From Stappia sp. TSB10P1A (lineage in GTDB: Bacteria > Pseudomonadota > Alphaproteobacteria > Rhizobiales > Stappiaceae): a DNA stretch of 64,000 nucleotides. Where the stretch lies: NCBI RefSeq assembly GCF_900185725.1, contig NZ_FYAU01000025.1:62001-126000 (forward strand), given 5' to 3'. Below are positions 37,168-42,187 of this stretch, piece by piece (the stretch's first letter is position 1; every line of letters begins with the position of its first letter). The position numbers and the translations under genes are program-made. Under the pieces are notes generated by a model. It was not told the origin of the DNA, did no database searches, and saw only the letters and a program-made list of their open reading frames with translations.

Positions 37168-38214
37168 CTACGGTTCTAAGGCACGGACCTGAGGAAAGGG
37201 AACGGGTCGGCACCTGATACCTTCGTCGGAGATGTGGACGCAAGTCATCGCAGCATCCGCGGCATTCGGATAGGGGCCGGCATAGAGGGTCACGCCGTCG
37301 CCTGTCTCTGCTGCCAGAATGTGGCTTTGCAGTTGTTCGGGCAGGTCCTTGCGCGCGCTCCGCAGCTTCGACCATGCGGCCTCGGCATCGGCCTGGGAGG
37401 CGTAGCTGCCGAGATCGACGGCGAAATCGGTTCTCTGGATACGCTCCGCGCTGCCCGGAGCGATATGGCCTGCCGCCTGCGTCACGGCGAGGGAGGGCAG
37501 TGCGGGCGTCGGGTGGGCGTCCTGTCCGGCCGGCGCGGGAATCGATGCCGTGCTGCCGGGCGGTTCGCTTCCCGGCAGTGCGACGATCCGCACCGGCTGA
37601 CGGAGATTGTCCGGCAAGGCCGCACCGATCAGGTCGGCGACCTCCTTGTCGGGCGCAGCGGCGGTCGACGCCGGAACGGTCTTGTCAGGCGCCTTGCGGA
37701 CGTTCGGAGCGGGCAATGTCTCGACGGCGGTCGCACTTCCGGCACGGGCATCGACGGCGGCATCCACATCCTGCTGAAACCCGCTGGCGGCCTGCGCGGC
37801 CTGAACGGAGTTTGCATTCTCGGGGCCGACGGTGCGCTCGGCGAGCATCCTGTTGCGCTCGTTCAAAACGCTGGTGATGCGGCGCAATTCCGCGACCTCG
37901 CGGCGGAGCGTATCCAGTTCGGCCTGCATCATGCGTCGGGCCTGAGCCCCTTCGGTGCCGCCTTCGGACGGGTAGACCTCGATTCCACCGGCCGTGCGGG
38001 AGGTCACCGACGCCGTGGTGCGGACTTCTCCCGGCGGAGGAAGCGGGCCGCTGTCGATCTGCCGGCTGTGAAGGGGGAACTGGGGCGCAAGGAAGACGGA
38101 CGCCGATCCGACGATGGCGAACAGCATCGCCCCGCCGCCCCAAAGTGCGACGGACCGGGTGTCGCCGGAAACCCGTACCGGCTGCTTCCTCTTGCTCGAT
38201 TCCAGCGGTTTCAC
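37168..38214 (-). CDS. Membrane-anchored SPOR-like protein
   Basis: 348 residues. A short basic cytoplasmic N-terminus (ESSKRKQPVRVSG) is followed by one membrane helix (about 24-44), a coiled coil (about 92-128; AELDTLRREVAELRRITSVL), a long Ala/Pro-rich spacer and a C-terminal SPOR-type fold (about 265-340; TDFAVDLGSYASQADAEAAW and VTLYAGPYPNAADA). The topology suits binding denuded peptidoglycan at the septum. Divergent from glmS, whose product feeds peptidoglycan synthesis. The SPOR assignment is by pattern only. Confidence 0.65.
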   Translation of the reverse strand: MKPLESSKRKQPVRVSGDTRSVALWGGGAMLFAIVGSASVFLAPQFPLHSRQIDSGPLPPPGEVRTTASVTSRTAGGIEVYPSEGGTEGAQARRMMQAELDTLRREVAELRRITSVLNERNRMLAERTVGPENANSVQAAQAASGFQQDVDAAVDARAGSATAVETLPAPNVRKAPDKTVPASTAAAPDKEVADLIGAALPDNLRQPVRIVALPGSEPPGSTASIPAPAGQDAHPTPALPSLAVTQAAGHIAPGSAERIQRTDFAVDLGSYASQADAEAAWSKLRSARKDLPEQLQSHILAAETGDGVTLYAGPYPNAADAAMTCVHISDEGIRCRPVPFPQVRALEP

Positions 38215-40309: not shown

Positions 40310-40344
40310 TCCCGCGCACCGCGACAGACAACGGATCGAACACG

Positions 40345-40386
40345 ATGCGGCCGCCCGGAGAGTTCCGGGCGGCCGCATGCGTTTTT
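40345..40386 (+). terminator. Rho-independent terminator of glmS
   Basis: A 15-bp perfect stem (ATGCGGCCGCCCGGA, 40345-40359; TCCGGGCGGCCGCAT, 40364-40378), loop GAGT, followed by GCG and TTTTT (40382-40386). It lies 35 bases past glmS. The opposite gene ends at 40403, and the same hairpin may serve it more weakly. Confidence 0.9.
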
Positions 40387-40402
40387 GTTGGTCGCCATCG
40401 GC

Positions 40403-41989
40403 TCAGTTGGCGCTGTCCTGTTCGGCGGCCTCCGCGTCCTCGACCAGCGCCGGGCACAGCATGCCGAGCGATCCGACCGCGACGCAGGACCGGCACCAGG
40501 TGATGCCCTGGCGCTCCTGCTGCTGCAGCAGGTCTTCCTCGCTCATGCCTTCCGGCGCGGGGATGCAACTGCGGCCGCAAGGCTCCAGCTCCTCCTGTTC
40601 GCCGCGCAGCAGGCTGTAGAGCCGGCCGGTGGCGCACAGGGCCGGGGCCGCCGTGAAAGCTCCGGCAAGCGGCGGCGCCGCGTCCGTCGGCGGGATCTGC
40701 GACCCGGCGTCTGCCGTTGCCGCGTCCCCGTCATCGGAGGCGGAAGCGCCACTTTCGCTCTCTTCCGCCGGATTGCAGGCGGTAAACAGCTTGGCGAGCG
40801 TCTCCGGATCGGTATACGGCGCCTCGCCGCCGCCCAGCCCGCTGTCCTGACGGAAGCTGGTCCAGGCGTCCCGCGTCCGCCGTCCGGTCAAGCCGTCGAC
40901 CGGCCCGGCATCGTAACCGGCGGCATTCAGACAGGCCTGGATCCAGGAGATGTTCTCCTGCGGCGTCGGCGTGGGGCGTTCCGGCGCACAGCCTGCTCCG
41001 AACGGCCGGTATCCTTGCGCGCAGACACAGCGGTTCTGGCTGGAGGAATAGACGAACGGGAAGGTGCAGGCCTGGGTGTCGCGCCGCACGCATTCGCCCC
41101 GATCGACCACATAGCCGCTGGGGCAGATGCAGCCGCCCGCAGCCCGCGAATACTGCCAGGGGGCGATGCAGGCCGGCGGGGTGACGATCGGCGGCACCGG
41201 TACCGGCAGGATGCAGCGGCGCTCGCGGGCGGAATAGATGTAGGGCAGGTGGCAGACCGGAGGACGGTCCGGCAGCACGCAGCGGTCGCCGCGACGCACT
41301 TCCGGCGGGCGGCACACAATCGGGCGCTCGGGCATGACGCAGCGGTCACCGCGACGTACCTGCGGCGGCGGGCAGACGATCGGAGCCGGCATGACGCAGC
41401 GGCCGCCCTGCATGACGCGCGGCGGCAGGCACACGACCGGTAGTTCGGGCATGACGCAGCGGTCACCGCGGCGTACCTGCGGCGGCGGGCAGACGATCGG
41501 AGCCGGCATGACGCAGCGGCCGCCCTGCATGACGCGCGGCGGCAGGCACACGACCGGTAGCTCGGGCATGACGCAGCGGTCGCCGCGGCGCACCTGCGGC
41601 GGCGGGCAGATGATCGGGGCCGGCATGACGCAACGGCCCTCCCGCATGACGCGCGGCGGCAGACAGACCGCCGGACGCTCCGGCATCTCGCAGCGTCCGT
41701 TTCGCATGACGCGCGGCGGTGCGCAAAGAACCGGAATGTCGGGCATCACGCAGCGGCCGTTGCGCATCACTCTTGGAGGAGAGCAGAGAATGGGCCGATC
41801 CGGCAGGATGATCGGCCGGTCGCGATTGAGCTCTATCGGCTGGGCACTGGCCGGCGTCAGCAGGAAGGTCATGGCGGCAAGCGCCATGAGCAAGGGCAGC
41901 ATAACGGCTGTCCAGAACCGGACTGGTGCGGCGGGCGGGTCGGCGCAGGCAGCGCCGTTGGCGGCATATGCTCTGTTGGTCATTGCCAA
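40403..41989 (-). CDS. Secreted cysteine-repeat protein with peptidoglycan-binding domain
   Basis: 528 residues, family not recognised. A long N-region precedes a hydrophobic signal segment (about 24-49) ending PASAQ, so it is exported. Residues 66-242 hold nine 19-20 residue units of the form P-[IV]-x-C-x-PP-x-V-x6-C-x-MP-x, each with two Cys. Units 3-8 alternate two types as a 39-residue super-repeat (CLPPRVMQGGRCVMPA / CPPPQVRRGDRCVMPEL). Degenerate Cys modules follow (about 246-334), then a peptidoglycan-binding-1-like segment (about 346-382: WIQACLNAAGYDAGPVDGLT) and a Cys-rich tail. The Cys number is even within the repeats, suggesting disulfides. No neighbour reveals its task. Upstream lies a CRP-like dyad. 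Confidence 0.85.
   Translation of the reverse strand: MAMTNRAYAANGAACADPPAAPVRFWTAVMLPLLMALAAMTFLLTPASAQPIELNRDRPIILPDRPILCSPPRVMRNGRCVMPDIPVLCAPPRVMRNGRCEMPERPAVCLPPRVMREGRCVMPAPIICPPPQVRRGDRCVMPELPVVCLPPRVMQGGRCVMPAPIVCPPPQVRRGDRCVMPELPVVCLPPRVMQGGRCVMPAPIVCPPPQVRRGDRCVMPERPIVCRPPEVRRGDRCVLPDRPPVCHLPYIYSARERRCILPVPVPPIVTPPACIAPWQYSRAAGGCICPSGYVVDRGECVRRDTQACTFPFVYSSSQNRCVCAQGYRPFGAGCAPERPTPTPQENISWIQACLNAAGYDAGPVDGLTGRRTRDAWTSFRQDSGLGGGEAPYTDPETLAKLFTACNPAEESESGASASDDGDAATADAGSQIPPTDAAPPLAGAFTAAPALCATGRLYSLLRGEQEELEPCGRSCIPAPEGMSEEDLLQQQERQGITWCRSCVAVGSLGMLCPALVEDAEAAEQDSAN
41264..41794 (-). repeat. Tandem repeats coding the cysteine modules
   Basis: DNA coding residues 66-242 of the Cys-repeat protein. 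Within it a 117-base period is clear: copies start at 41333, 41450 and 41567. The first two differ at only 2 of 117 positions; the third is more diverged. The period equals 39 codons, one pair of protein units. Confidence 0.9.
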
Positions 41990-42080
41990 ATCCTCGCATT
42001 CACTGGTTTGACCGCCGGCCTGTCCTTGCGGGATCGGATGACGGGAGGAGGCCAGTTTGAGCCTGCCCGGGGTCGGGTGC

Positions 42081-42096
42081 CGTGACCGGCGTCACA
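42081..42096. promoter_or_regulatory. CRP/FNR-type dyad upstream of the Cys-repeat gene
   Basis: CGTGA-N6-TCACA, one base from the TGTGA-N6-TCACA core of CRP-family sites, about 92 bases before the gene start. Longer flanking pairing (GGGTCG 42070-42075 with CGACCC 42102-42107) means it could instead be an RNA hairpin. Confidence 0.35.
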
Positions 42097-42187
42097 CGCC
42101 GCGACCCGGTGTCGCACCATGGTAAACCAGCCGTGAGCAAACGGCATCCTGCGAGTGGCGACTGCGAGGAGGCCGCCTCCGCCGCAT

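What the first reader, a model, noticed from the sequence alone, without database searches (positions are those of the whole stretch)
40403..41989. Exported protein with nine two-cysteine repeats plus a peptidoglycan-binding segment
The repeat P-x-x-C-x-PP-x-V-x6-C-x-MP runs nine times (residues 66-242). It is followed by looser Cys modules, a peptidoglycan-binding-1-like stretch and a Cys-rich tail. I know of no named family with this plan. The regular Cys pairs in an exported chain suggest a disulfide-stapled rod or metal/redox array attached to the cell wall. An orphan CcdA (35.3 kb) that could supply reductant to the periplasm is nearby, but the link is speculative.
Basis: partly seen in the sequence, partly recalled or inferred. 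Interest (0 to 1): 0.75.

Follow-up and report, generated by a model that had tools for sequence, protein, structure and literature searches.

The report
Disulfide-hairpin array protein in Stappia
A bacterium and its close relatives encode what looks like an exported protein whose front end is a chain of small loops, each probably held by its own pair of cysteines, and whose back end combines a wall-binding-type domain with a cysteine domain also found in unusual caspase-like proteins; what it does is untested, and it may be an envelope spacer or linker.

Summary
The gene (window 40403-41983, minus strand, ATG start, 526 aa) has a likely signal peptide and nine C-x-P-P-x-V-x5-C units (the finding wrote x6). 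Then come one longer hairpin, two 4-Cys modules, a PG_binding_1 domain just above Pfam's cut-off, an acidic linker and a 6-Cys domain.

Orthologues occur in 13 of 14 Stappia genomes searched (own included) and 1 of 3 of a sister genus, beside DUF454 in all 14 carriers and beside glmS in 13. Unit number varies (5-12), yet mature cysteines are even in 14 of 14 proteins and none is left over outside the modules. AlphaFold2 draws one beta-hairpin per Cys pair, at low confidence. The array is cationic (+16 to +32). dN/dS is 0.16-0.45.

Two links are new to this work. Hairpin arrays recur in other proteins of the order. The 6-Cys domain is homologous (HHalign 98%) to a domain just upstream of caspase-like domains that lack the catalytic cysteine.

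Best reading: a peptidoglycan-attached, disulfide-stapled cationic arm that spaces or tethers the envelope. Pairing and export are fairly well supported by sequence; tethering is inference. The CcdA link and a metal or redox array are not supported.

The parts
40403..41983 (-). Whole gene, 526 aa, ATG start
   Evidence: ORF; start codon and GAGGA-type site compared across relatives; purifying selection; GC at codon positions 0.70/0.59/0.84
41843..41983 (-). Probable Sec signal peptide, residues 1-47, ending A-S-A|Q
   Evidence: Hydropathy; an A|Q or A|K site found by pattern in 14 of 14 orthologues; helix 19-42 in the low-confidence model. No signal-peptide predictor was available
41279..41785 (-). 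Array of nine C-x10-C hairpin units, residues 67-235; the region from the cleavage site to the next hairpin has net charge +16
   Evidence: one pair of short strands per unit in the model
41213..41254 (-). Longer hairpin C-x12-C with LPYIYS, residues 244-257
   Evidence: Both Cys and LPY invariant in 14 of 14; strands 249-251 and 256-258 in the model
41090..41170 (-). 4-Cys module 1 (C-x12-C-x-C-x10-C), residues 272-298
   Evidence: two predicted hairpins; absent in one orthologue, L030
40988..41068 (-). 4-Cys module 2, residues 306-332
   Evidence: absent in L030
40772..40960 (-). PG_binding_1 domain with its own Cys pair (C351, C403), about residues 342-404
   Evidence: Pfam 24.3 bits, cut-off 23; three helices in the model; second Cys kept in 22 of 22 aligned proteins
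40655..40771 (-). Acidic, variable linker, about residues 405-443
   Evidence: Alignment; net charge -7 to -14 in 14 orthologues, with boundaries set slightly differently
40454..40636 (-). C-terminal 6-Cys domain, residues 450-510, shared with caspase-like proteins of other families
   Evidence: HHalign 98% probability, E 2.4e-13

Best explanation
An exported envelope protein. Sec removes the signal peptide and the periplasmic oxidising system closes each Cys pair locally, one disulfide per beta-hairpin. The result is a chain of about ten small stapled hairpins joined by Pro-rich hinges, followed by two double-hairpin modules. The Cys-stapled PG_binding_1 domain attaches the chain to peptidoglycan. 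The acidic linker and 6-Cys domain form a second folded head. The cationic, Arg-rich arm projects from the wall and probably holds an anionic partner such as outer-membrane LPS, capsule or another wall strand, acting as a spacer or tether. Its length changes by unit duplication and loss. Shown by computation: export-type N-terminus, repeated pair spacing, even gain and loss of cysteines, selection, charge, homology of the tail. Inferred: disulfide state, wall binding, tethering and the partner.
For: Mature cysteines are 24-42 and even in 14 of 14 orthologues, while cysteines before the cleavage site are 0-2. By my count the mature number equals 2n+18, or 2n+10 in L030, which lacks both 4-Cys modules, n being the C-x10-C units found; so no array cysteine is left outside a C-x10-C unit. 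AlphaFold2 places two short strands at the same offset in all nine units, then five more such pairs, and three helices in the wall domain (mean pLDDT 53.6, pTM 0.21). PG_binding_1 passes its cut-off. Array charge is +16 to +32, and linker and tail are acidic, in 14 of 14. dN/dS against the window is 0.16-0.45 for the array (own Nei-Gojobori script; unit-to-unit orthology is set by the alignment). DsbB is in 14 of 14 Stappia genomes. Hairpin arrays with PG_binding_1 recur in L072 and L073 (Pfam for L072 only).
Against: The model is low confidence and no S-S distances could be read. The PG_binding_1 score is marginal (24.3 against 23); in the related short protein L105 it falls below the cut-off (21.2). 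No conserved partner gene was found among the neighbours, and one Stappia genome (G007) lacks the gene, with glmS followed directly by DUF454, so it is dispensable there. The polarity (array outward, wall domain inward) is assumed.
Confidence: 0.42

Rival explanations
1. A secreted or surface binding protein: the hairpins act as a multivalent sticky array (adhesion, host or polymer binding), and the wall domain only anchors it.
For: Change in unit number (5-12), strong positive charge, similar arrays in DUF11 proteins of the order. Tandem cysteine-rich repeat peptides studied so far share high avidity (PMC6262176, abstract and passages seen).
Against: The array is under purifying selection much like the rest of the protein, with no sign in those averages of diversifying selection. 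No secretion signal beyond a Sec-type N-terminus was noticed.
Confidence: 0.22
2. The protein is what remains of a secreted pseudo-orthocaspase: its 4-Cys modules, wall domain and 6-Cys domain are the regulatory half of such proteins, here working without the caspase domain and enlarged at the front by hairpin duplication.
For: L119 carries 4-Cys-like modules, a region aligned to the wall domain with both Cys, the 6-Cys domain and then a caspase domain, in the same order. The tail domains match at 98% probability. Short forms without caspase exist in another family (L105, L120). This is an origin and may hold together with the best explanation.
Against: No tree was built, so the direction of change (loss or gain of the caspase) is not settled. 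The wall domain is degenerate in the caspase forms and Pfam does not report it there.
Confidence: 0.2
3. A metal-binding or thiol redox array in the periplasm.
For: 36 mature cysteines; the tail has C-x3-C and C-x2-C spacings that could hold a metal.
Against: 0-2 His per protein; cysteine numbers are always even and fit paired units; CcdA is not a conserved neighbour; no metal-binding family among the Pfam and NCBIfam matches.
Confidence: 0.08

Closest known systems
PG_binding_1 (PF01471)
   Same: Score over cut-off, GY-x-x-G-x-x-DG motif, three helices in the model
   Different: Carries its own Cys pair and is joined to a 6-Cys domain; score only just above the cut-off
Pseudo-orthocaspases of Rhizobiales (PMC6426788; start of abstract, passages and one section seen)
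   Same: Caspase-like relatives found here share a homologous 6-Cys domain and, in L119, L122, L123 and L126, a region with both wall-domain Cys in front of it
   Different: No caspase domain in the window protein. [quoted passage not shown] the word peptidoglycan does not occur in that paper's main text. Whether my loci are in that paper's set was not checked
CPxG-type hairpin arrays in DUF11/PG_binding_1 proteins of the order (L072, L073)
   Same: Runs of C-x10-C hairpins in a protein with PG_binding_1 (Pfam for L072)
   Different: Those arrays lie at the C-terminus after DUF11 domains; here the array is N-terminal and uses C-x-PP instead of C-P-x-G. Their N-termini were not in the fetched loci
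EB, TIL and EGF-like Cys modules (PF01683, PF01826, fibrillin EGF)
   Same: Small Cys-rich modules; EB is reported for the sister-genus orthologue L015 and fibrillin is a weak profile match (E 0.015)
   Different: The window protein reports no EB or TIL match; each unit has two cysteines, not the larger sets that I recall for these modules
SCREPs, secreted cysteine-rich repeat proteins (PMC6262176; abstract and passages seen)
   Same: Secreted, disulfide-rich, tandem repeated; bacterial candidates are included in that set
   Different: A broad data-mined class motivated by venom peptides; the parts I saw say nothing about wall attachment

Membership tests
PG_binding_1 (PF01471) | Profile score at or above the curated cut-off | tested here: met
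   24.3 bits, cut-off 23
PG_binding_1 (PF01471) | Binds peptidoglycan | not testable with these tools
   Needs a sacculus pull-down
Orthocaspase / Peptidase_C14 (PF00656) | Caspase p20 domain present | tested here: not met
   Not among the matches at E up to 10 for the window protein, though its tail domain is shared with such proteins
EB module (PF01683) | Profile score at cut-off | tested here: not met
   Not reported for the window protein; whole-protein score over cut-off in orthologue L015 (36.8 against 24.3, with no single stretch passing)
EGF-like domains | Six cysteines with 1-3, 2-4, 5-6 pairing (recalled) | tested here: not met
   Array units hold two cysteines; only sub-threshold EGF matches in the 4-Cys modules
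CPxG-type hairpin arrays of the order | Tandem C-x10-C units | tested here: met
   L015 carries both C-P-x-G and C-x-PP units
Disulfide-stapled proteins | Array cysteines paired in the mature protein | tested here: inconclusive
   Even cysteines in 14 of 14 and predicted hairpins; no direct measurement

The most novel reading that the evidence does not exclude
A Cys-stapled PG_binding_1 plus 6-Cys domain is an unnamed envelope module of Hyphomicrobiales. It serves secreted pseudo-orthocaspases in some families. In Stappia it has been freed from the caspase and fitted with a length-variable, cationic rod of disulfide hairpins that bridges the wall and an anionic layer.
Probability: 0.3. Interest if true: 0.65.

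Novelty: new variant of a known kind. Interest (0 to 1): 0.45.

Why it matters
If right, it gives a bacterial example of a length-variable disulfide-hairpin rod attached to the wall. It also picks out a conserved, apparently wall-associated module in front of caspase-like proteins that lack the catalytic cysteine, and offers a natural caspase-free version in which that half can be studied alone.

Tried and rejected
CcdA link: rejected. In L138, L139, L140 and L143 no CcdA lies in the 3.8-4.6 kb beyond EamA, while in the window and in L142 it does. In L141 (G001) the glmS side of the gene is different: neither glmS, EamA nor CcdA is in the 7.7 kb there.

Plasmid homologues: none for the C-terminal 285 aa. 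Solved structures: only weak matches (best E 0.0086). No second array in the window genome at E up to 0.01, with 26 of 54 first-look candidates scored. The window genome's one Peptidase_C14 match (L163) is a different protein with SGHG and DACR motifs and no 6-Cys domain seen. The short relatives L105 and L120 have none of the window's neighbour genes within the 14-15 kb fetched around them (L164, L165).

Spread outside the order: the array profile matched 2 of 289 class genomes, the own genome and L062, a different Cys-rich protein. The 6-Cys profile matched 2 of 289 (the own genome and G287 at 2.2e-4, probably chance) and, in a wider form, 1 of 385 (own genome only). Those draws hold few genomes of the order, and the first look scores only some candidates per genome, so misses are possible.

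Papers: six searches listed nothing that I recognised as this protein or plan. The library lacks most subscription papers.

Not done: no tree, no signal-peptide predictor, no fold search. L132 and L133 gave no frame to my script, and L135-L137 were weak and not examined.

Full report
What is there. The gene lies at 40403-41983 on the minus strand between glmS and a DUF454 gene. The listed TTG start (41989) is probably wrong: an ATG at 41983 follows a GAGGA-type site, and this ATG and the sequence just before it are nearly identical in L004, L008, L028 and L029. The 526-aa product has a hydrophobic segment ending A-S-A|Q, nine C-x10-C units, one C-x12-C hairpin, two 4-Cys modules, a PG_binding_1 domain (24.3 bits, cut-off 23), an acidic linker and a 6-Cys tail. 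The finding's V-x6-C should be V-x5-C. The repeat count is far above chance: 11 observed, mean 1.17 and maximum 6 in 20,000 shuffles. Part of the array is a 117-bp tandem repeat at 90% match.

Who has it. The genus is Stappia, from record titles of L028-L030. At E up to 1e-10, 14 of 61 genomes of the first relatives search match: 13 of the 14 genus genomes, own included, and G029, which is 1 of the 3 genomes of its genus there. In 87 genomes of the family, 79 have some match at E up to 0.001 to the C-terminal 265 aa, but the long matches (E 1.4e-79 or better) are the same 14; the others are weak (best 6.6e-10) and cover mainly the PG_binding_1 part. DUF454 lies beside the gene in all 14 carriers and glmS in 13 of 14; in G001 the glmS side is different (window; others). 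In G007, which lacks the gene, glmS is followed directly by DUF454.

How the array behaves in evolution. Unit number before the LPY hairpin runs from 5 to 12. The units were found by the pattern C-x10-C itself, so the exact spacing is shown by the fact that no array cysteine is left over: mature cysteines number 2n+18, or 2n+10 in L030, which lacks both 4-Cys modules (my count). They are even in 14 of 14 proteins (24 to 42), while cysteines before the cleavage site are 0-2. dN/dS against the window is 0.16-0.45 for the array and 0.17-0.36 for the rest (own script, gapped columns left out, dS up to 1.29). The region from the cleavage site to the LPY hairpin carries +16 to +32 net charge; the linker and tail are acidic; each protein has 0-2 His.

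Structure. AlphaFold2 on four sequences drew 14 pairs of adjacent short strands, read as hairpins: one per unit, one for LPY and two per 4-Cys module, plus three helices in the wall domain. Confidence is low (mean pLDDT 53.6, pTM 0.21; tail mostly under 50). The alignment is shallow, and atom distances were not available. A deeper job on the array could not be run.

Relatives of the parts. A three-unit profile matched 18 of 249 genomes of the order at E up to 0.01; five of these are orthologues, the rest other Cys-hairpin proteins or weak matches. Those read include DUF11 plus PG_binding_1 proteins with C-terminal arrays and a FecR protein. The 4-Cys profile matched 16 of 249, five of them orthologues. 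The 6-Cys profile matched 25 of 249, five of them orthologues, in 13 of 111 genera; the weakest three, at E 3e-4 to 5.6e-4, have a stop in frame and may be chance. The profile already held the stretches of L105 and L101 found.

The caspase connection. Of seven long frames with the 6-Cys domain given to Pfam, six hit Peptidase_C14 (L119, L121, L122, L127, L130, L134) and L125 did not at E up to 0.01. L105 and L120, from another family, have a short plan (hairpins, wall domain, 6-Cys domain) without caspase; PG_binding_1 is below the cut-off in L105 (21.2) and just above it in L120 (23.4). HHalign between separate alignments of the Stappia tails and of 12 caspase-linked domains gives 98% probability, E 2.4e-13. 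In 22 aligned proteins holding both parts, eight Cys columns are invariant; my selection pattern required the first wall-domain Cys and the W-C Cys, and all but required the next one, so only five columns are independent. Seven of 29 proteins were left out: L121 and L125 (cut by the locus edge), L124 (missed by the pattern) and L127, L128, L131 and L134 (no such wall domain seen). Across 15 sequences the tail keeps C, C, C, P, P, W, C, C. In 11 of 13 caspase-like frames my script found the site where the catalytic cysteine is expected, and it held S, E or D in all 11; for L124 and L134 the script failed and I read S by eye. The site was placed by motif, not by structure. Pseudo-orthocaspases of Rhizobiales are already known (PMC6426788).

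Interpretation. Disulfide pairing is the simplest reading of the spacing, the even counts and the hairpins, and DsbB is in 14 of 14 Stappia genomes. A marginal wall-binding domain and a cationic arm suggest a spacer or tether; this is inference. CcdA is not a conserved neighbour. The whole plan has no family in Pfam or NCBIfam, and six paper searches listed no description that I recognised, but each part is of a known general kind, hence a new variant.

Noticed in passing
Several have a modified PG_binding-like region with both cysteines.
   Followed up: partly
window 40310-42187 and loci L144-L151: The gap between glmS and DUF454/DUF502 is a spot of gene turnover: this gene in Stappia, nothing in G007, a protein resembling LysE-type exporters in G019 and G024, and one resembling an acetyltransferase in G014 and G016 (names by eye).
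   Followed up: partly
L141 (G001): The orthologue keeps its DUF454 side but glmS is not in the 7.7 kb on the other side, so the neighbourhood is rearranged there.
   Followed up: partly
L015 (G029): Sister-genus orthologue with 12 units, mixing C-P-x-G and C-x-PP types, a possible intermediate between the order-wide hairpin and the Stappia repeat.
   Followed up: partly
L074: Part of a large protein with about 26 Cys-hairpin-like spacings, many of them near-identical CRPP units.
   Followed up: no
L062 (G240, another family of the class): Very long Cys-rich repeat protein (open frame 1529 aa in the search row) of a different pattern, in a 1.4-Mb genome.
   Followed up: no
L163 (window genome, other contig): A separate orthocaspase-like protein with intact-looking SGHG and DACR motifs.
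   Followed up: no
window 37168-38214: Predicted protein beside glmS that I took for a SPOR-type envelope protein by eye; it was not given to Pfam.
   Followed up: no
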